A stretch of 64,000 nucleotides of DNA from Rhizobium brockwellii (GTDB lineage Bacteria > Pseudomonadota > Alphaproteobacteria > Rhizobiales > Rhizobiaceae), in the NCBI RefSeq assembly GCF_000769405.2, contig NZ_CP053439.1, positions 1,488,001 through 1,552,000 of the forward strand, in the 5' to 3' direction. Both the position numbers and the translations under genes were made by a program. How positions within the stretch are numbered: position 1 is the first letter of the stretch; the number at the start of each line of letters is the position of its first letter. The notes below the pieces were generated by a model. It worked only from the letters and a program-made list of their open reading frames with translations, was not told where the DNA came from and ran no database searches. This document shows, one piece after another, positions 35,589-45,572 of this stretch.

Positions 35589-35869
35589 CGGCAGAGCGGG
35601 GCCTGGGACAAAATTCGAAGAAGCGCCCCTTCTTCCTGCGGCTCTCGATCGATTGTCGGCACGCACCGGATCGCGTGGACTGGGATCTCCCGATCGCGGC
35701 GAGGAGCCGGCGTTTACTTGTATCAACACTTCTGATTGTGCCGCTTGTCAGAAGATTGTCCCTTGTGCATTGATCAGATGCTTGGGATCGCCGGTCCGCA
35801 GACGAGATGCGGCAATTGTTTGGGCGAGGCGGTCATCGCGGTGACCGTCGTAAAGCGACGGCGCTCTAA

Positions 35870-35932
35870 CACTTTCAATCAACACGTCCTGCTTTCCGAA
35901 AATCGATTCCGATTTCGGGCCGATGCGTTAGC
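35870..35932. repeat. Rhizobial palindromic intergenic repeat
   Basis: Contains CCGAAAATCGATTCCGATTTCGG, an imperfect inverted repeat, with the flanks CGTCCTGCTTT and GCCGATGCGTTAG usual for this Rhizobium repeat type. It interrupts or ends the decayed reading frame at 35879. Between maiA and this element (35589-35869) I see no gene or clear signal. Confidence 0.65.
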
Positions 35933-36290
35933 AGCCGTCAAGCACTTTGAGGTCTTGCCAAACATATAGGTGGTCTGGACATCGGCGCGACCCTGGCAGC
36001 GACGGCCGTCACTGGTGACGTATTGGTACGAAACCCTGACATCATTATTGCCGCGCAGCGCCGTGCCTGTGAGTTTGAGCGGCTGCGACATCGCGCCGAA
36101 GAAGGCGTGGATCGACACTTCGTTGAAGGCCCCCTGGCCGCGCTTCTCCGGAATGACCAGCGCTGAGGCGGTTTCACCAAAAGGATGATGCGCTCGAATT
36201 CGATTGCGACGGCCAATTGAGATATTGCGATTACGCGTCAGAGATCCGATTGACAGACAATGACCGTAGGTTTGGGCCGGGCCTCGGTTC
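35879..36290 (-). pseudogene. Decayed gene for a small exported-type hypothetical protein (frameshift, altered C-terminus)
   Basis: On the minus strand a coding-like stretch ending VSIHAFFGAMSQPLKLTG...VRVSYQYVTSDGRRCQGRADVQTTYMFGKT is open from about 36178 to 35879. The part further upstream (IAISQLAVAIEFERIILL) is coding-like in a different frame, implying a frameshift near 36180. The last codons run into the palindromic repeat, so the natural C-terminus is replaced. I recognise the style of a small rhizobial secreted protein but no named family. No intact start codon with ribosome site is visible. Confidence 0.5.
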
Positions 36291-36352
36291 GATTATCGCG
36301 CGTCGGCTCCGACGAAGCGTCCTTCGGTAGGTCCAACTTGAATTGATAGAGT

Positions 36353-37957
36353 CTATGAGATGTCGGTGAAAGCCTTTGTCTTTCTTCGGCCGCGCGGCGG
36401 CCCCTTTTTGCTTGGTGTCGCCCCGGCCCGATCAGCGGATTGCTTCGCAAGTTCCAGGATGTTGTCCACCACCAGCGATATCGCTGGCTCTTCGTTGGCG
36501 ATGTAGGACGGGCTCTTATCCTCGATCCTAGGGACCGGCTTTTTCTCCGCCCACTGCAATGCCTTCCCATCGGAAGTCTTGCGTTTCTTCTTCTCGAAGA
36601 TGTCGCGATATCGACGCGGAGAAATCCCGATGAAGGGTTCGAAGAGCACTTTGGTGTATTGTTCGGAAGGTGAAAAGGTGATCGAGTCCTCGTGAAGATC
36701 CTTGGCGTGGCTTTTCGGGTAGGGTTCTAGAAACACGACACGTCGTATGCCGGAGGACACGATGTGCTTCGCACACATGTGGCACGGGAACGTGGTCGTG
36801 AAGAGAATGGAGTCGGCCAACGCTTTGCCCTTGCGGGCCGCATCCGTAATCGCCGACATCTCCGCATGGATGATGCGGCCGAACTCGATGATGTCCATCA
36901 CGCGGGAGTCGGAGATGAGTCCTTCGGACATCATCTTCTTCACTTGGTTGGACGTCGCGCCTTCCTTCTCGAGCTTGTCGGAGAGGTAGCCTAGCTGCCC
37001 CATACGATCCACGAGGTCGTGAAGCAGACGAAGCTTTCGGCTATGGTTTCCGTCCTCGCCTTCTTCGAAATCGCGATGGGGAGCGCCCGCATCGTCGCAC
37101 CAATAAGTGCCGCCGAATGCTTTCGGCACCTCGTTGCAGCCAAGCGTGATGATCTCACCACGATCCGAGAAGATCGCCGCGCCGATCTGTCGAGAGAGGT
37201 CGAGTGAGCGGAGAGATGCGCCGGCCGCGGCGTACATTCCATACTCGCCCTTTGTGGGAGACAGCCCGTTATGACCGAAGAAGGCGTGGACGAATCTTTC
37301 GACGACCTCCTTCGCCTCGCCCCCGCCCTGACCGGGAACGAAGACATCGCCGAGGTGAAAGACGTCGGAGACACGCTGCCCGAAGATCTCTGCGACCTCG
37401 TTATGATCGCGAGCGATGAGGTCGATGGCCTCCTTTTCCGCTTTGTCGTCTTCAACGATCTCAGTGCCGAATCCTTTGATCTTCTTCATGAGCTGCCGAC
37501 GGCGCTCGTCGGGATCGGAGTAGATCGAGACTTGTACGAACTTCCGGCCATAAACCGCGCGAAGAAGGCTGATTTCTTCCTCCCGCTTGAGTTGACGAAT
37601 GATGTAGGCAGTTCCGAGTGCAGGCTGATCCGGGCCTTTGCCGGTCAGGCGAGCTCTTCTACGTCGAATGTCGCTGATGGCGAGGCAGGCGAGAGCACCG
37701 TTGTTATTCACCTTTCGGCGAACCTCGTCGGCATGACCGATGAGCGATCTGTACCGATTGCCGTAGGTGTCTTCATCAACGACGATATGGGGAAGGACGT
37801 CGCGCATCACCTGTGTGATGTGGACCATCTCGCTCCTGTACTGGACATCCGCTAGCGCTTCCTTCAAGAAGCGTACGATCGCATCAAGGTCGACGCCGAT
37901 TGGCCCGACAAGTCCAATAACGATCTCCGGGTCGTCGACGGTGGCTGCAGTGGTCAA
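36353..37957 (-). CDS. Anti-phage dCTP deaminase homologue (N-terminal P-loop-like, C-terminal zinc deaminase)
   Basis: A 534-residue two-domain protein. The N-terminal 220 residues resemble a nucleoside-kinase/P-loop fold but with a degenerate loop (GLVGPIGVDLD, residues 15-25, no GK[ST]). The C-terminal domain is a cytidine-deaminase fold with zinc ligands H364-A-E366 (IIHAEMSAITDA) and C392-x-x-C395 (PCHMCAKHIV). This layout is that of defensive dCTP deaminases (Tal et al. 2022), which convert dCTP to dUTP on phage infection and starve replication. The start is a TTG at 37957 with TTAGGAG 7 bases before it. It is isolated from operons and followed by a decayed gene. Confidence 0.83.
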   Translation of the reverse strand: MTTAATVDDPEIVIGLVGPIGVDLDAIVRFLKEALADVQYRSEMVHITQVMRDVLPHIVVDEDTYGNRYRSLIGHADEVRRKVNNNGALACLAISDIRRRRARLTGKGPDQPALGTAYIIRQLKREEEISLLRAVYGRKFVQVSIYSDPDERRRQLMKKIKGFGTEIVEDDKAEKEAIDLIARDHNEVAEIFGQRVSDVFHLGDVFVPGQGGGEAKEVVERFVHAFFGHNGLSPTKGEYGMYAAAGASLRSLDLSRQIGAAIFSDRGEIITLGCNEVPKAFGGTYWCDDAGAPHRDFEEGEDGNHSRKLRLLHDLVDRMGQLGYLSDKLEKEGATSNQVKKMMSEGLISDSRVMDIIEFGRIIHAEMSAITDAARKGKALADSILFTTTFPCHMCAKHIVSSGIRRVVFLEPYPKSHAKDLHEDSITFSPSEQYTKVLFEPFIGISPRRYRDIFEKKKRKTSDGKALQWAEKKPVPRIEDKSPSYIANEEPAISLVVDNILELAKQSADRAGATPSKKGPPRGRRKTKAFTDIS

Positions 37958-38060
37958 TCGTGGCTCCTAAGGGGAACATTAAGGACTGTGGTGCGATTAT
38001 CATATCGCGCCTTTGTTAATACGAGTATTATCGAGTCGGGATCACTTGGAGGGTGTAGTG

Positions 38061-38228
38061 ATGAAAGCCAACCTAGCCGTGCAGGACACATCCACAAGCA
38101 AAGAGCGCGGAGATGAGCTGCGCGCGATCATGAAGAATGCCGTCAAAAACGTTCTGGAGCGTCCGGAAACTCTTCGCGGACCATACGTCATTCGCGACGC
38201 TGATTTGAAGCTCAGCGAGCAGCGCTGA
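38061..38228 (+). CDS. Small hypothetical protein (55 aa)
   Basis: A 55-residue charged, helical protein (TSKERGDELRAIMKNAVKNVLERPETLRGPYVIRDADLKLSEQR) with no membrane part. GGAGGG stands about 10 bases before the ATG at 38061. It is divergent from the dCTP deaminase gene with 103 bases between the starts, so it could be a regulator or partner of it, but nothing in its sequence shows this. Confidence 0.5.
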   Translation: MKANLAVQDTSTSKERGDELRAIMKNAVKNVLERPETLRGPYVIRDADLKLSEQR

Positions 38229-38793
38229 AGCTTTCGCGCGAGCGATACCCGCTCGCGCCTCAAAACACCATTTTCCCTTCAAGCGGTTTGCTCGCGGTGG
38301 CTCGAGCGATGATGCCTTGCAATGTGCGGCAGTGGCTGGTTCGAGCAACGTCGAGGAAGTCAACCTCGGACCTTATTGATCACCACCCTGCTGATAAGAA
38401 GCTTACCGCCGCTGAACTGGGAAGTGCCAAAGAGACGGAGCGCGGGTTGAAGTTCATCTCCGCCTCAAGATTTCGCGCATCGCGGCCGAGCCATCGGCCG
38501 AGGCGCATGGCAGCGCTCGATTGCCCGGCGCGCAAGGCCGCCCGCAAGGATGGGATGATGTGCCGCGTGGCAGCCATCGCATACAGGGTCACTAGATTGA
38601 AGAGGTCGCCGGAGCCGCCCGTCGAGCGAGGGACGAGATGATGGAATGTCAGCGTCGCACGAGTTGATTTTCGTCGAGCATGAGACGCAACGGAACTGGT
38701 TTCTCGCCAGAACAAAGGCGTCGGTTGCCTTCCCAATTATCTAACTTCAAGATTCGTTCGTTGAGCGGCGTGGTGCTCGGAAGGCGAGCTCGT
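38229..38793. other. Gene-poor stretch with decayed coding DNA
   Basis: 565 bases between the 55-residue gene and the TPR gene. The only coding-like content is the HNH-type remnant on the minus strand (38380-38736). Other open frames here lack ribosome sites and protein-like composition. Confidence 0.5.
38380..38736 (-). pseudogene. Possible remnant of an HNH endonuclease gene
   Basis: The frame contains RATLTFHHLVPRSTGG and, a short way on, FNLVTL, which match the first His pair and the Asn strand of HNH nucleases. The Cys/His pairs that should follow are not recognisable (YAMAATRHIIPSLRAAL), and there is no clear start. Probably a degenerate copy; it may be chance similarity. Confidence 0.3.
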
Positions 38794-40434
38794 CTAGTCG
38801 TCGCCGAGAACGCGAGGGCTGTCATCTCCGATCACATCGTCCCATTTGACCGCGCCGATCGACGCAAGCGCTTGCGACTTGATCGCACTGACACGAACAC
38901 CATCGGCGACCTGCTTGCGAAGCACGGCGATATCTTTGGGAATGGTGAAGCCTCTTTTCGTCGCCAGTTCCAGGTTGCTGTCAATCTTCCCGAGTAGGGA
39001 CTCACCCTGGCTGAGATCCAAGCGAGAGACTTCGCGCGAGAGATAGCAAATAGCTCGGAACGCCAGCCCCCGATTCTTGGCCGCGAGTGCTTTCTCGATC
39101 GCAGCCATGTAATTGGCCGCACCGGCTTCATAATTGCCTTCGCGAAAATTGATCAACCCCCCGGTTGCTATGACCACGACGTCGTCATCGTCTTCGCCCA
39201 GGGAAGCTTGTGCCTTCCCGATGAGGTGGCGAGCGTCGTCGAACCGGCCTTGCAGCGCTTTGACGGCGGCAAGGTTGTTGAGAAGCGTCTTGTTCTTTGG
39301 GTTTGCAAGCAGACCGTAGGCGCCGATTGTCGCGGCACTGTCGAGCGCTTCCATTGTGACGCAGCCTATGAACGTGGCGAGAATGGCTGGGCGCGCACTG
39401 AAGGGCTCGATTTTCCGCCAGTCTCCGCAATGAGCGACGGCCTCCTCCCAGGATGAGCGTTCGTAAGCAGAATATGCCGAAGCCTCCTGGGACAGTGAGA
39501 CGTCGACGTTGAGTTCCGCGTGCTTAAAATCAGCCCTGTGACGGGCGACCCAATCGATCTGCGCAATAGCATTCTCCGTCGGGCTTTCCGCACCTCGACG
39601 AAGCATCCGAATCGCTTGCTTTCGAGAGCCTGCCTCGTACTCCATGCTTCCCATCTGAACGGCAAGTTCAGAGACGTCACGAGAAGAAAATCTGGCATCG
39701 CCGAGCAGGGACTTAGCCCCACGCCAGCCGGTCGGAACGCGTCCAGACGCTGCCTGGATCGCGAAAAGCGCAGATCTGAGCCATGGGTCGGAGAGCGTCG
39801 CGTCGGATGCATTCAGGAAGTGTAGCGCCTCGTCAGGATCGCCGACATGCATGAAGAAGCGTGAAGTAGCCCTGAGGACGTATCTGTCGTCTGGACGGAG
39901 GATGAGCGCACGGCGGAGGAGCGACCATGCGGATTTCCTCTGACCGACGTTTGCGTATAGGAGCGCAGACTCTGCCAACCGTAGAGCGTCGCGTGGATTG
40001 AGTTCTAGCAGGCGTTTCCGCTTGGCGATCTCGACCCTGATCTGCGCCTCCTCGACCGGAAGGTTGGCATCACCCTCGCCATTGGTATTGCGGGCCAGAA
40101 CTCGACGAACGAAGTTCATCCTGGCGTCGTCCTCGCTGCCCCTCTCGATTAGCGATAGGCCTGCACGTTCCGCTCGCGGGTCATCCAGCCGGTCCGCGAG
40201 GAGAGCAAGGCCTATCAGTTCTTCTGCGTCTTCGAGCGTATTCGTCGCGAGCCATCTCTCGGCCGATCGATTGAATTCGGTCTCGAGAAAGTGGCTCGCT
40301 TCCTCAACGAGGCCCGTCTGCAATGGCGACGCCGCGCGCGAGGTTGCGCCGAGTTCTCCAAGAAGCCGCGACTCTTTAATTGAGAGCCATCGAGGAATGG
40401 TCTGACGATTCGACTGGTCGTCGCTGTCGATCAC
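38794..40434 (-). CDS. Tetratricopeptide-repeat protein, partner of the adjacent kinase
   Basis: A 546-residue soluble protein made mostly of helical pairs with TPR character, e.g. ALRLAESALLYANVGQRKSAWSLLRRALILRPDDRYVL (about residues 155-192), PDEALHFLN, LLNNLAAVKALQGRFDDARHLIGKAQ (near 388-413) and INFREGNYEAGAANYMAAIEKAL. There is no catalytic motif, signal peptide or membrane segment. It starts with a GTG (40434) directly after the TAA of the kinase gene, with no base between, so the two are one transcriptional and probably translational unit. TPR scaffolds commonly present substrates or sense partners; a sensor or substrate role for the kinase is inference. Confidence 0.8.
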   Translation of the reverse strand: MIDSDDQSNRQTIPRWLSIKESRLLGELGATSRAASPLQTGLVEEASHFLETEFNRSAERWLATNTLEDAEELIGLALLADRLDDPRAERAGLSLIERGSEDDARMNFVRRVLARNTNGEGDANLPVEEAQIRVEIAKRKRLLELNPRDALRLAESALLYANVGQRKSAWSLLRRALILRPDDRYVLRATSRFFMHVGDPDEALHFLNASDATLSDPWLRSALFAIQAASGRVPTGWRGAKSLLGDARFSSRDVSELAVQMGSMEYEAGSRKQAIRMLRRGAESPTENAIAQIDWVARHRADFKHAELNVDVSLSQEASAYSAYERSSWEEAVAHCGDWRKIEPFSARPAILATFIGCVTMEALDSAATIGAYGLLANPKNKTLLNNLAAVKALQGRFDDARHLIGKAQASLGEDDDDVVVIATGGLINFREGNYEAGAANYMAAIEKALAAKNRGLAFRAICYLSREVSRLDLSQGESLLGKIDSNLELATKRGFTIPKDIAVLRKQVADGVRVSAIKSQALASIGAVKWDDVIGDDSPRVLGDD

Positions 40435-41529
40435 TTATACAGCCATTCGGTGAACAAGATCGGCGCGCTTCGCGAGCCGATCGAAAATCGCAATGTAGCG
40501 CTCCAGCGAGAATCGGTTGCCGGCCTTTACCCTGTCCAAGGGATGGCCTCGGAATGCGGGGTCGGGGTTGCAAAGCTCTGAAGCCGCCTTTGTGAGGTCT
40601 TCGGCAACCATTGGATCCAACGCCCCATTCAACTCCGAGAGCAAGTCGGTGAAGTGATGCTGAACTACAGGCAGGGCTGCGAGGTATGTCCCGTTCCACG
40701 TCCCGTGGATGGTCTGCGGACGTTCAGATACTGCAAGGCGAGATACCAGTTGCTGCGTGCAGCCGAAGCCGGTCGCGAAGAAGAAAATCATGCTGCCGAG
40801 GAGGTAGAGGTCGCATCCAAGACGTCGCGTGGCGAAGTCCGGATCAAGCTGCGCATAGAGGATCTCAGGAGGCGCATAACCGAAGTCGCCTGAGAAGAGC
40901 AGGTCGTCGTGAGGACCCGCGGTCCCATCGTAGATCGCGCGGCCGAGGTCTGCGACGCGGAAATCACGTGTGTTGCCGAACGCGAGGACATTCGACGGCT
41001 TCAAGTCTTGATGTGCGATCCGCCGGGAGTGCAGCTGCTGCAGTCCGACCGCAATCTGGTGCATCGCATGAAGCCACCAGGAAAGTCGGAGAGAGTCGTT
41101 AACCCGTTGGACACGGCGCCGGACGTCGCCATCAGCCAGTTCGAATATAAGATAGGGGGCCTTGTCCTGCAGATTCACGCCGACCGAGACCTGGCCACTC
41201 TCAAGAGCGATCACGACCCTGTCCATCTTCTCGCCCTCACAGATTTTCAGCAGCAGAGCTTCGAAGCTGTGTGCCGACGTGATCTGGTGAAGCTCCATGA
41301 GCATATTCGGCGAATGCATCGCCGATGTAAGGTCTATCGCTTTGAGGAAAGCCCGCCTGCCGTCCTTCTCGACGATGTAAGGAACTGAAAAGTGGCCGCC
41401 GGTTCCGTTATAGTGATCACTGCCGAGACCGGTGCAGGGATCCCAGCCGACGGTTTCAACAACCTTCCACCCGCTCGATAGCTGCTTGCCCAAGAGCTTC
41501 CAGGCTCCGGCGAGATGTTCGACTGTCAT
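40435..41529 (-). CDS. Serine/threonine protein kinase-like protein
   Basis: A 364-residue eukaryotic-type kinase without membrane helix. Catalytic residues appear intact: glycine-rich GTGGHFS (42-48), ATP-site K63 in FLKAID, catalytic loop HQDLKPSN (H173 to N180, Asp 175), metal Asp 194 in VADLG (DLG instead of DFG), YAPPEIL (218-224) and D240-LYLLGS. The first 40 residues and the last 70 are extra regions of unknown role. The ATG at 41529 has GGGAGTTAGGA before it; an earlier in-frame ATG (41583) is less likely. First gene of a two-gene unit with the TPR protein. Bacterial kinases of this kind next to defence genes can act in abortive infection. Confidence 0.85.
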   Translation of the reverse strand: MTVEHLAGAWKLLGKQLSSGWKVVETVGWDPCTGLGSDHYNGTGGHFSVPYIVEKDGRRAFLKAIDLTSAMHSPNMLMELHQITSAHSFEALLLKICEGEKMDRVVIALESGQVSVGVNLQDKAPYLIFELADGDVRRRVQRVNDSLRLSWWLHAMHQIAVGLQQLHSRRIAHQDLKPSNVLAFGNTRDFRVADLGRAIYDGTAGPHDDLLFSGDFGYAPPEILYAQLDPDFATRRLGCDLYLLGSMIFFFATGFGCTQQLVSRLAVSERPQTIHGTWNGTYLAALPVVQHHFTDLLSELNGALDPMVAEDLTKAASELCNPDPAFRGHPLDRVKAGNRFSLERYIAIFDRLAKRADLVHRMAV

Positions 41530-41595
41530 TCCTAACTCCCGTTTAAGATAGATCCCTCCGTCCCGGATCACGTCGCTTCTCACTTTTCAGGCGTT

Positions 41596-41735
41596 GTTTC
41601 CGGTCGCTCTCGCAGCCGGAAACTTTATCTTTTGGTTACTAGGCGGCATTTCAGTGTCGCCGTAGGTCGCTCTACACATTATATTATTAGCGCGTCCTAG
41701 TTTTCTGCTGTGTCGAACCTAGTGGCACGACACAA
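41596..41735. other. Intergenic stretch with two hairpins between nrdJ and the kinase gene
   Basis: A perfect 8-base inverted repeat (GTTTCCGG, 41596-41603; CCGGAAAC, 41616-41623) and a second inverted repeat around TGTGTCG...CGACACA near 41709-41735, on either side of an AT-rich patch (ACACATTATATTATTAG). The second hairpin is well placed to terminate nrdJ; the AT-rich patch may carry the kinase-TPR promoter. Confidence 0.4.
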
Positions 41736-41756
41736 TAGGCGTGACAACAGCCTCCC

Positions 41757-44700
41757 TCAGCTGCACCCGCTCGTAGCACCACACGTGTCGCACTTCTCAC
41801 AAGTCCCGTTCCGCACCATCGTGAAGTTCTGGCACTCCGAGCACATGTTGCCGGTATAGCCCTGCATGATCGAGCGCTGGCGGCGTTCGGCTTCGCGCTT
41901 CTTGGCTTCGGATTTTGCCGTTGCCGCGTCTGCCGCCGCCTTGTCGGAGAAGAGGGCCGTTGCGTCGCTGGTGAGTTCCTCGGTCACCTCTTCGGCGATC
42001 TCTTCCGCCAGTTCCTTGGCGCGCTCTTCGTAATCGCGCTTGAAGGCGACGATTTCGGAGGTGGCGATGGCGACCGTCGGCTCCAGCTTGCGGGCAGCCG
42101 CGCCTGCAAAGGCGGTCACGGTGCCGGTGGAAGCGGCGCGGGCAGGGGCGGCGGTGGCCGCACCTTTGGGTTCGCCTGCCTGGCGTTCGCCGCCGGTGCC
42201 GGACACCAGGGTCGGCTTGTAGCCGCGGGTCCAGCCGGTGGAGAGCAGGTTGGTCTTGCCTTCCTGGATGCCCTTGCCAAGCGCGGTGTTCGAGAAATCC
42301 GACGTATCGACATGCGCCAGGTCATGGCGGCCGAGATAGGAAACGGCAAGCTCGCGGAAGACATAGTCGAGGATCGAGGTAGCGTTCTTGATCGCGTCAT
42401 TGCCGATGACCATGCCGGCCGGCTCGAACTTGGTGAAGGTGAAGGCCTCGACATATTCCTCGAGCGGCACGCCATATTGCAGGCCGAGCGAGATGGCGAT
42501 GGCGAAATTGTTCATCATCGCACGGAAGGCAGCGCCTTCCTTGTGCATGTCGATGAAGATCTCGCCGATGCGGCCGTCGCCGAATTCACCGGTGCGCAGA
42601 TAGACCTTGTGTCCGCCGACGGCGGCCTTCTGGGTATAGCCCTGGCGGCGGTTCGGCAGCTTCTCGCGTTCGCGCGAAACTCGTTCGATCACCCGCTCGA
42701 TGATCTTCTCGGTGACGGTAACGGCCTGGGCGGCCAGCGGCGCCTGCAGTAGTTCCTCCAGCGCATCCTCGTCGTCTTCGTCCTCGATCAGCGAGGAGTT
42801 GAGCGGCTGCGACAGTTTCGAGCCGTCGCGATAGAGCGCGTTGGCCTTGAGGCCAAGCTTCCAGGAGAGCATGTAGGCGTTCTTGCAATCCTCGACGGTC
42901 GCCTCGTTCGGCATGTTGATCGTCTTGGAAATCGCGCCGGAGATGAACGGCTGGGCAGCCGCCATCATGCGGATATGGCTTTCCACCGAGAGGTAGCGCT
43001 TGCCGACCTTGCCGCACGGATTGGCGCAATCGAAGACCGGCAGGTGCTCATTCTTGAGGAAGGGCGCGCCTTCCAGTGTCATCGCACCGCAGACATGGAT
43101 GTTGGCGGCTTCGATGTCCTTCTTCGAGAAGCCGATATGGTCAAGCAGGCTGAAGCTCATGTCGGCGAGCTGTTCGTCGGAAACCTTCAGCGTTTCCTTC
43201 AGGAAGTCGGCGCCGAGCGTCCACTGGTTGAAGACGAATTTGATGTCGAAGGCGCTCTTCAGCGCGGCGTTGACGGCTTCGACCTTCTCGTCGGTGAAGC
43301 CCTTGGTCTTCAGCGTCGACGGATTGACAGCCGGCGCCTGGTTCAGGTTGCCGTGGCCGACGGCATAGGCCTCGATCTCGGCGATCTGGCTTTCCGAATA
43401 GCCGAGCGTGCGCAGCGCGTCGGGCACGGCGCGGTTGATGATCTTGAAGTAGCCGCCGCCGGCGAGCTTCTTGAACTTGACGAGGGCAAAGTCGGGCTCG
43501 ATGCCTGTCGTGTCGCAATCCATGACGAGACCGATCGTGCCGGTGGGCGCGATGACCGAGACCTGCGCATTGCGGTAGCCATGCTGTTCACCAAGCTCGA
43601 GCGCCTTGTCCCAGGCCGATTTGGCGTGGGCGACGAGATCCTGGTCCGGGTTTTCCGAATGGATCAGGGCGACCGGGTTGATCGACAGCGCTTCATAGCC
43701 GGAGCTCTCGCCATGCGCGGCACGGCGATGGTTGCGAATGACCTTGAGCATGCTCTCGCGGTTCGGCGCGAAGTTCGGGAAGGGCCCAAGCTCGGCAGCC
43801 ATTTCGGCCGAGGTCGCATAGCAGATGCCGGTCATGATCGCGGTCAGCGACCCAGCGATGGCGCGGGCTTCAGCGGAGTCATAGGGAATGCCAGTCGACA
43901 TCAGCAGGCCGCCGATATTGGCGTAGCCGAGACCGAGCGTGCGGTATTCGTAGGAGAGTTCGGCAATGCGCTTCGACGGGAACTGCGCCATCATCACCGA
44001 AACTTCGAGCACGACGGTCCAGAGCCGAACCGCGTGTTCGTAATCGGCGATGTTGATGCGCTTGGTGGCCTTGTCCTTGAACTGCAGCAGGTTCAGCGAG
44101 GCAAGGTTGCAGGCGGTGTCGTCGAGGAACATGTATTCCGAGCACGGGTTCGAGCCGCGGATCGGGCCGCCGGCCGGCGAAGTGTGCCAGTCGTTCATCG
44201 TCGTGTTGAAGTGGATGCCCGGATCGGCCGAGGCCCAGGCTGCGTAGGAAATGGTTTCCCAGAGGTCGCGCGCCTTCAGCGTCTTCATCACTCGGCCGTC
44301 CTTGCGGGCGGTCAGGTTCCATTCGCCATCATTCTCGACGGCGCGAAGGAAGTCGTCCTTGATCGAGACGGAGTTGTTGGAGTTCTGGCCGGATACCGTG
44401 AGGTAGGCTTCCGAATCCCAATCCGTGTCGTAGGTCTTGAATTGGAGATCCTTGTAGCCCTGGCGGGCGAACTGTATGACGCGCTGGACGTAGTTCTCCG
44501 GAACCTGGTCCTTCTTGGCGGCGCGGATTTCGCGCTTCAGGGCAGGGTTCTTGTTGGGGTCGTAGCAATCGCCGTTATCGCCGCCTTCGCAATTTAAGCA
44601 GGCCTTCATGATCGTCTTCAGATGCTTGGCGACAACCTTGGAGCCGGTCACGAGAGCCGCAACCTTCTGCTCTTCCTTGACCTTCCAGTTGATGTATTCC

Positions 44701-45572
44701 TCGATATCGGGATGGTCGATGTCGACGACCACCATCTTGGCGGCGCGGCGCGTCGTGCCGCCCGATTTGATGGCGCCGGCGGCGCGGTCGCCGATCTTCA
44801 GGAAGCTCATCAGGCCGGAGGAACGGCCGCCGCCGGAAAGCTTTTCGCCTTCGCCGCGCAGCATCGAGAAGTTGGAGCCGGTGCCGGAGCCGTATTTGAA
44901 CAGGCGCGCTTCACGCACCCAAAGGTCCATGATGCCGCCTTCGTTGACGAGATCGTCTTCGACAGACTGGATGAAGCAGGCATGCGGCTGCGGGTGTTCG
45001 TAGGCCGACTTGGACTTGGTCAGCTTGCCGGTGAAAGGATCGACATAGAAATGGCCCTGGCCGGGGCCGTCGATGCCGTAGGCCCAGTGCAGGCCGGTGT
45101 TGAACCATTGCGGCGAGTTCGGGGCGACGCGCTGGGTGGCGAGCATATAGGCAAGCTCGTCCTTGAAGGCCGAGGCGTCTTCCTCGGAGGAGAAATAGCC
45201 GCCCTTCCAGCCCCAATAGGTCCAGGTCCCGGCAAGACGGTCGAAGACCTGGCGCGCATCGATTTCGGAGCCGGTCTGTTCGTCCTTAGACAGGGTCTTC
45301 AGCGCAGCATCGTCGGGAACGGAGCGCCACAGGAAGGAAGGAACATCGTTTTCCTCGACCTTCTTCAGCCGGGTGGGAACGCCGGCCTTACGGAAATACT
45401 TCTGCGCCAGCACGTCGGTGGCGACCTGGGAGAACTGCGCGGGAACGTCGATGTTCTCGAGGCGGAACACGATCGAACCGTCGGGGTTCTTGATCTCGCT
45501 CGTCGCCTTGCGGAATTCGATCTCCGCATAGGCGCCTTGGCCGGCCTTTGTGAAACGACGTTCGATGCGCAT
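41757..45572 (-). CDS. nrdJ: Vitamin B12-dependent ribonucleoside-diphosphate reductase (class II)
   Basis: Makes deoxyribonucleotides using adenosylcobalamin; usually the essential ribonucleotide reductase of rhizobia. The 1271-residue protein has the class II active-site segment [21 protein letters not shown], an extended middle and a C-terminal zinc-ribbon-like, redox-active tail [28 protein letters not shown]. Length and tail match alphaproteobacterial NrdJ. It is a single gene; two NrdR-like boxes spaced 31 bases apart lie 128-174 bases upstream of the ATG. Several long open frames on the opposite strand are composition shadows. Confidence 0.97.

What the first reader, a model, noticed from the sequence alone, without database searches (positions are those of the whole stretch)
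38794..41529. Abutting protein kinase-TPR gene pair: candidate new defence or signalling module
A kinase with all main catalytic residues (K63, HQDLKPSN, DLG, PPE) and a 546-residue TPR protein are fused head to tail at the DNA level: kinase TAA immediately followed by TPR GTG. Both are soluble and have no housekeeping neighbours. They sit in a 6-kb accessory block with a dCTP-deaminase defence gene and decayed genes, between two conserved core loci (maiA and nrdJ). Known: bacterial Ser/Thr kinases (Stk2, PglW) work in abortive infection. Inference: the TPR protein senses infection or is the target, the kinase the effector. I do not recall this exact two-gene arrangement as a named system.
Basis: partly seen in the sequence, partly recalled or inferred. 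Interest (0 to 1): 0.8.

Follow-up and report, generated by a model that had tools for sequence, protein, structure and literature searches.

The report
Kinase–TPR gene pair, candidate phage defence
Two abutting bacterial genes, a protein kinase and a helical scaffold protein, travel together on phages, plasmids and a chromosomal defence site and are most likely an anti-phage immune system that is already listed, untested as far as I could find, as a candidate in one database.

Summary
In detail: an intact Hanks-type kinase gene (40435-41529, minus) ends in TAA directly followed by the GTG of a 546-residue TPR gene. The arrangement is not unnamed: PADLOC 2023 matches both genes over their length as PDC-M71A (E 4e-100) and PDC-M71B (E 4e-93), a phage defence candidate. 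I found no experimental report of it.

New here: the TPR gene follows a full-length kinase in 15 of 15 loci, junction -4 to +10 nt. The kinase is rare (5 of 148 genus genomes), yet all five lie directly 3' of nrdJ. In 3 of 20 relatives without the pair there, that place holds Gabija, CBASS or PDC-M33/methyltransferase genes. Pair alleles diverged far more than flanking core genes. In two viral contigs the pair sits in the published P2 (gpA–gpQ) and P4 (psu–int) defence hotspots. The kinase is non-RD with catalytic residues invariant in 14 of 14.

Best reading: a TPR-controlled kinase that aborts infection. Defence is well supported by context; the mechanism is inferred.

The parts
40435..41529 (-). 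M71A: Hanks-type protein kinase, 364 aa, non-RD (HQD), catalytic residues present
   Evidence: PDC-M71A E 4.1e-100, residues 1-358; AF2 pLDDT 72.5, pTM 0.77
38794..40434 (-). M71B: TPR superhelix protein, 546 aa, GTG start, invariant N-terminal R-x3-P-x-W motif in a low-confidence (probably disordered) tail, invariant R184/R188/R192 and D216-P217-W218
   Evidence: PDC-M71B E 4.4e-93; pLDDT 72.7, pTM 0.42
40432..40437 (-). Junction TAA|GTG, no gap, no Shine-Dalgarno visible by eye for the second gene; translational coupling inferred
   Evidence: sequence; junctions of -4 to +10 nt in the other 13 distinct pairs (GTG and TTG start choices uncertain)
36353..37957 (-). Anti-phage dCTP deaminase gene, neighbour in the same accessory block, not part of the pair (no relative of it found beside the other pairs)
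   Evidence: dCTPase E 6.1e-161; NF041025 over cut-off
38380..38736 (-). Probable remnant of an HNH endonuclease gene between the pair and the deaminase
   Evidence: HNH E 0.00078, 20.0 bits, cut-off 21.4
41757..45572 (-). nrdJ, core flank; its stop lies 227 bp before the kinase ATG, same strand
   Evidence: (found in 40 of 40 genus genomes searched)

Best explanation
The pair is a two-gene anti-phage system of the kind catalogued as PDC-M71. One tightly coupled transcript makes the kinase and the TPR protein in matched amounts; they form a complex in which the TPR protein holds the kinase (probably through its invariant N-terminal R-x3-P-x-W motif) and recognises a phage-made or phage-altered protein on its faster-evolving superhelix. 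Recognition frees or positions the constitutively competent non-RD kinase, which phosphorylates host (or phage) proteins and stops phage production, most likely by halting growth. Shown: intact genes, catalytic residues, strict pairing, mobility, placement in defence hotspots. Inferred: one transcript, defence activity, complex, sensing, phosphorylation targets, abortive outcome. My split: defence against phages or rival mobile elements about 0.78; TPR-sensor/kinase-effector given defence about 0.65.
For: PADLOC M71A/M71B matches over the length of both proteins. TPR gene directly downstream in 15 of 15 loci with a full-length kinase (14 distinct sequences, as G808 has the same proteins as L004). 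Kinase and TPR distances correlate, r 0.72 over 12 loci after dropping the two closest rows, reached in 0 of 20000 permutations. Patchy: 5 of 148 genus genomes, 6 of 394 family genomes with a strong TPR match, 1 of 398 phylum genomes, the window's own. All five viral-contig matches carry the pair; L087 sits between a gpA-type replication protein and a portal protein, L088 between Psu-like proteins and an integrase, the hotspots defined in PMC9122126 (passages). Kinase GC3 there is 0.24 and 0.27, against 0.64-0.69 for the two portal-side neighbours in L087 and 0.63-0.81 on the psu side in L088; less contrast to the gpA-type gene (0.47) and the integrase (0.40). At the nrdJ site, fourfold sites differ 64-72% in the kinase against 18-40% in nrdJ and 12-47% in other flanking genes. 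Identity to the window is lower for TPR than for kinase in 13 of 13 relatives, as expected of the part that meets the phage. Catalytic residues invariant, HQD or HND in 14 of 14.
Against: I found no phage test of this pair. Among the pair's own neighbours few are defence genes: of 10 neighbour proteins picked by eye and scanned, one (PDC-S02 in L038) matched at E 1e-5. No record of the phages collection matched the window kinase. AF2 pTM for the TPR protein is only 0.42 and no complex was modelled. Correlated distances are also expected of any two genes that move together, and a faster TPR gene could merely be less constrained.
Confidence: 0.52

Rival explanations
1. Toxin-antitoxin type: the kinase is a standing toxin and the TPR protein its inhibitor; phage takeover or a phage protein removes the inhibition (logic like KKP, with a TPR protein in place of the phosphatase). 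Still defence, but the TPR protein is a brake, not a sensor scaffold.
For: Tight coupling and strict pairing. In the four broken loci the kinase is cut, broken by stops or missing (L006 cut by an IS21-like element; L040 cut beside an IS6 transposase; G744 with stops; L046 TPR remnant without kinase): no locus has a full-length kinase without TPR, as expected if a kinase without brake is harmful. KKP precedent: abstract and two passages of PMC11341870.
Against: The kinase gene comes first, while many TA operons put the antitoxin first (recalled). Four broken loci are few, and a TPR gene that is needed for function would give the same pattern.
Confidence: 0.22
2. Mobile-element housekeeping: the pair serves the phage, satellite or plasmid that carries it (lysogeny control, superinfection exclusion, maintenance) and chromosomal copies are stranded cargo.
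For: Found on viral contigs and plasmids; some copies have small regulators upstream, MarR/IclR-type in L037 and L042, ribbon-helix-helix plus a small hydrophobic protein in L043 and L045.
Against: Carriers are unrelated (P2-like, P4-like and other phage contigs; rhizobial, Arthrobacter and Deinococcus plasmids) and the GC3 of the pair differs from most carrier genes; recurrent presence at the chromosomal nrdJ site with purifying selection on the protein (80-88% kinase identity with fourfold sites differing 64-72%).
Confidence: 0.14
3. Ordinary host signalling pair without role in defence.
For: Kinases with TPR partners are common in bacteria (recalled); nrdJ is adjacent and co-directional.
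Against: 5 of 148 genus genomes, hotspot positions, lower GC3 than core genes in several carriers, and no metabolic gene recurring beside the pair outside the nrdJ site.
Confidence: 0.08

Closest known systems
PDC-M71 (PADLOC-DB 2.0.0 phage defence candidate, models PDLC04780, PDLC04781, PDLC04782)
   Same: Both genes over their length, adjacent. It is this family.
   Different: Nothing tested differs; I found no mechanism or experiment for it.
KKP (PfkA, PfkB, PfpC) of prophages
   Same: Prophage-borne kinase module that defends by toxic phosphorylation (PMC11341870, abstract and two passages)
   Different: KKP has two kinases and a phosphatase; here one kinase and a TPR protein, and no phosphatase among the block's ORFs scanned
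Stk2 of staphylococci
   Same: Eukaryotic-like kinase used in phage defence (named in passages of PMC11341870; cited in PMC9519451)
   Different: Single gene; the window kinase matches only residues 154-254, E 3.2e-5
PD-T4-6
   Same: Kinase-based defence family; catalytic core matches, E 1.1e-15 at best
   Different: One gene (recalled; listed as one ORF in PMC11514479, passages); best match covers residues 118-254 only
DS-6 (HipA-related kinase with a DUF3037/DUF1829 protein)
   Same: Two-gene kinase defence system, kinase activity needed (PMC13092281, passages)
   Different: HipA-type kinase and a different partner; that paper's figures, which also name TPR proteins, were not seen
MADS Mad6 and BREX type 2 PglW
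   Same: Defence-associated kinases; Mad6 E 3.7e-15 for residues 121-224
   Different: No methylase, Pgl or other Mad partner among the block's ORFs scanned
Plant non-RD receptor kinases (analogy, recalled)
   Same: Immune kinases that lack the HRD arginine
   Different: No homology claim beyond the kinase fold

Membership tests
PDC-M71 | Kinase gene matching model M71A over its length | tested here: met
   E 4.1e-100, residues 1-358, profile 1-347 of 352
PDC-M71 | TPR gene matching model M71B over its length | tested here: met
   E 4.4e-93, residues 6-486, profile 6-488 of 515
PDC-M71 | Two genes adjacent | tested here: met
   TAA|GTG
PDC-M71 | Protects against phages | not testable with these tools
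   No experiment found
KKP | Two Ser/Thr kinases and a phosphatase | tested here: not met
   One kinase and no phosphatase among the block's ORFs scanned; the genome's two other Pkinase places are on other contigs
Stk2 | Full-length match to the Stk2 model, stand-alone kinase | tested here: not met
   E 3.2e-5, residues 154-254 only; a partner gene follows in 15 of 15 loci
PD-T4-6 | Full-length match, stand-alone kinase | tested here: not met
   Best E 1.1e-15 over residues 118-254 only
Active Hanks-type protein kinase | VAIK Lys, alphaC Glu, HxDxKxxN, DxG, xPE | tested here: met
   Invariant in 14 of 14
Active Hanks-type protein kinase | Phosphotransfer activity | not testable with these tools
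   -
Anti-phage dCTP deaminase (neighbour) | NF041025 over curated cut-off | tested here: met
   453.2 bits, cut-off 400

The most novel reading that the evidence does not exclude
PDC-M71 is a real, general kinase-based immune switch: an always-ready non-RD kinase kept under a TPR receptor that binds it through an N-terminal R-x3-P-x-W peptide and reads phage proteins, spread by P2-like phages, P4-like satellites, plasmids and a chromosomal defence hotspot 3' of nrdJ in rhizobia (for which I found no report), where the same system has arrived or been replaced several times.
Probability: 0.45. Interest if true: 0.62.

Novelty: new member of a known kind. Interest (0 to 1): 0.42.

Why it matters
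Kinase-based phage defence is known from few examples, and how such kinases are kept off and switched on is mostly open. A two-gene system with a kinase that lacks the usual activation arginine and a dedicated TPR partner offers a compact case to test sensing and effector separately. The nrdJ-side site gives a place to look for further defence genes in rhizobia.

Tried and rejected
Rejected: an unnamed arrangement (one search names it); a housekeeping kinase–TPR operon; dCTP deaminase as a third component (no relative beside the other pairs); a conserved third gene (outside the nrdJ site only small upstream genes of two subgroups recur beside the pair; the nrdJ-site loci window, L004 and L005 share only the pair and the genes on the nrdJ side). 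An RNA element near the deaminase was sought with Rfam in 34-47 kb at E up to 0.5 and not found. dN/dS could not be computed, as synonymous sites were saturated in all but the near-identical L004/G808 comparison; fourfold-site differences were used instead (four of the five nrdJ-site carriers, L006 over 274 residues). One flank-gene row for L004 with n 13 aligned badly and was dropped. Fold searches gave only generic protein kinases (mostly CDK2-type) and TPR superhelices with TM-scores of 0.22-0.40 to the query. One search counts 69 of 394 genomes, but only 6 are strong (E below 1e-80); the other 63 have short TPR matches of E 1.6e-5 or worse and were dropped.

Hotspot control: 117 ORFs of 100 aa or more lie within 6 kb 3' of nrdJ in 20 relatives (20 of the 40 genomes, chosen by hand; G808, which has the pair, was not among them). 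Ten picked by eye were scanned: 8 match PADLOC at E up to 1e-20, in 3 loci; a ninth, TIR, at 4e-12; one none. The other 107 were scanned: three families, one member each. One search placed two of these members in the same 3 loci (E2 in G810, 'beta' in G297) and added PDC-M33B and Vsr in G781 at E 1e-18 to 1e-20; the mad2 member was not identified. Control: 58 window ORFs outside the block gave one match, mad3. The difference is suggestive and rests on 3 of 20 loci; it is not a formal test.

Full report
What is there. On the minus strand, 40435-41529 encodes a 364-residue protein kinase and 38794-40434 a 546-residue TPR protein; the kinase stop TAA is followed at once by the TPR start GTG. The GTG start is backed by relatives: the R-x3-P-x-W motif lies close to the start in 14 of 14 aligned proteins. 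By eye, the kinase has a ribosome-binding stretch before its ATG and the TPR gene has none, so the second gene probably depends on coupled translation.

Name. PADLOC-DB 2.0.0 matches both genes over their length as PDC-M71A (E 4.1e-100) and PDC-M71B (E 4.4e-93). 'PDC' means phage defence candidate (PMC11514479, passages). No paper of the held library holds the term PDC-M71; searches for kinase, tetratricopeptide, anti-phage and two-gene, for PADLOC, PDC and Rhizobium, for kinase defence with TPR and for PDC-M with kinase and TPR listed nothing on this pair. The preprint that I recall as the source of the PDC names is not held. In PMC13092281 I saw passages only; its figure legends name TPR proteins, and the figures were not seen.

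Pairing. Counting a place once, 15 loci have a full-length kinase with sequence downstream: the window, L004, L005, G808, L037, L038, L039, L042, L043 (L086 carries the same TPR sequence), L044, L045, L085, L087, L088 and L089. In 15 of 15 the TPR gene follows on the same strand. The junction runs from a 4-nt overlap (L038, L039, L042, L087, L088) over a 1-nt overlap (L043, L045) and abutment (window, L005) to a gap of at most about 10 nt. Four further loci are broken: L006 (kinase cut after residue 274 by an IS21-like element; the IS name is recalled), L040 (kinase fragment beside an IS6 transposase), G744 (kinase with stops; no TPR in the stretch fetched), and G297 (TPR remnant at a contig start, no kinase seen).

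Co-inheritance. Kinase and TPR distances correlate with r 0.72 over 12 loci (L004 and L005 dropped as close to the window; r 0.92 with all 14), reached in 0 of 20000 permutations. Identity to the window is lower for TPR than for kinase in 13 of 13 relatives. That fits a TPR protein facing a changing partner, but weaker constraint alone would look the same.

Distribution. The kinase is found in 5 of 148 genomes of the genus (E 1e-15), 2 of 397 of the order sample, the window's own and a broken one, and 1 of 398 of the phylum sample, the window's own (E 1e-25). Strong TPR matches occur in 6 of 394 family genomes, one of them the G297 remnant. The window genome has three Pkinase places and one M71A.

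The nrdJ site. None of 20 relatives examined has DNA matching the pair there (blastn E 1e-10). In three of the 20 the site holds recognised defence genes: GajA and GajB (Gabija) plus 'cll' and 'beta' in G297; a CBASS-type cyclase, E2 and PD-Lambda-5_A in G810; and a type II methyltransferase with Vsr and PDC-M33A, B and C in G781. A fourth, G795, has a weak TIR match of 4e-12. Counts and control are in Tried and rejected. I found no report of a nrdJ-side hotspot (45 papers, ten listed, nrdJ in none of those ten).

Recurrent arrival. Between four carriers at the nrdJ site (window, L004, L005, L006), fourfold-degenerate sites differ by 18-40% in nrdJ but 64-72% in the kinase and, between the three with a TPR gene, 69-74% in the TPR gene. 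Other flanking genes differ by 12-23% (window against L006) and 34-47% (against L004 and L005; one badly aligned row left out). nrdJ has strong codon bias, which lowers its figure, but the other flanks agree. So the pair copies did not simply descend with their flanks; they arrived more than once or were swapped. Kinase protein identity of 80-88% with near-saturated silent sites shows purifying selection.

Carriers. L087 has the pair between a protein matching 'nicking at origin of replication' (phrog_91, E 5e-263) and a portal protein (phrog_68, E 2e-170) followed by the terminase. L088 has it between two Psu-like proteins (phrog_6165 E 3e-62, phrog_6366 E 1e-83) and an integrase (phrog_1 E 6e-67). 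PMC9122126 (passages) places the P2 defence hotspot between gpA and gpQ and the P4 hotspot between psu and int. GC3 of the pair there is 0.24-0.30, below all its neighbours, by the least against the integrase (0.40) and the gpA-type gene (0.47). L089 has it after UmuD-like and polymerase genes, with a tail protein further upstream. On plasmids it lies near an integrase, a TniQ protein and a NACHT protein (L037), one gene away from a PDC-S02 gene (L038), and about 3 kb from an annotated Pycsar effector (L039). Results against: only 1 of 10 neighbour proteins scanned matched PADLOC, and the phages collection has no match to the window kinase; with a divergent kinase as query 13 phage records give partial matches of 35-50% of the query, not followed up.

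Mechanism. The kinase keeps Lys63, Glu90, Asp175, Lys177, Asn180, Asp194 and Glu222 in 14 of 14, but the residue before the catalytic Asp is Gln or Asn in 14 of 14: a non-RD kinase, a class that usually does not depend on activation-loop phosphorylation (recalled). Control is then likely to come from a partner. The TPR protein is predicted as a long helical superhelix with a low-confidence first 43 residues, yet those hold the invariant R-x3-P-x-W; I read that as a docking peptide (inference). The kinase model is a normal protein kinase fold. Two subgroups add small upstream genes: MarR/IclR-type (L037, L042) and ribbon-helix-helix plus a small hydrophobic protein (L043, L045), suggesting that expression needs holding down, as for a harmful effector.

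Verdict. Ordinary as to kind: a member of a catalogued candidate family. Useful as to evidence: strict pairing, hotspot placement in a P2-like and a P4-like element, and a recurrent chromosomal site make a defence role likely. The mechanism is open and directly testable.

Noticed in passing
window 35790-41756 and loci L060, L062, L077: The 3' side of nrdJ is a variable site in the genus that in 3 of 20 relatives holds Gabija, CBASS-type or PDC-M33/methyltransferase/Vsr genes; looks like a defence hotspot.
   Followed up: partly
window 36353-37957 (-): Intact anti-phage dCTP deaminase gene (AvcD-type by recall) with HAE and PCxxC motifs; no Rfam RNA found in 34-47 kb.
   Followed up: partly
L037:3450-3980, L042:7899-8360, L043:7766-8280, L045:11205-11687: Small regulator genes directly upstream of the pair in two subgroups: MarR/IclR-type, or ribbon-helix-helix plus a small hydrophobic protein.
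   Followed up: partly
L006:10001-11129: In R. phaseoli JHI366 the nrdJ-side kinase is cut off by an IS21-like element (IS name recalled).
   Followed up: yes
L046:976-2361 (G297): TPR remnant without kinase; the contig then shares genes with the far side of the pair in L005, so it may lie beyond the Gabija genes at the same nrdJ site; a contig break hides this.
   Followed up: partly
window 38061-38228 (+): 55-aa open frame between deaminase and TPR gene, divergent from the deaminase; no Pfam family over cut-off.
   Followed up: no
L039 and L040, Deinococcus plasmids: A histidine kinase and response regulator pair lies directly upstream of the kinase in both plasmids.
   Followed up: no
window, one of 58 ORFs outside 36-41.6 kb: One ORF matches PADLOC mad3 (E 5.8e-32); which one was not identified, may be a generic enzyme family.
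   Followed up: no
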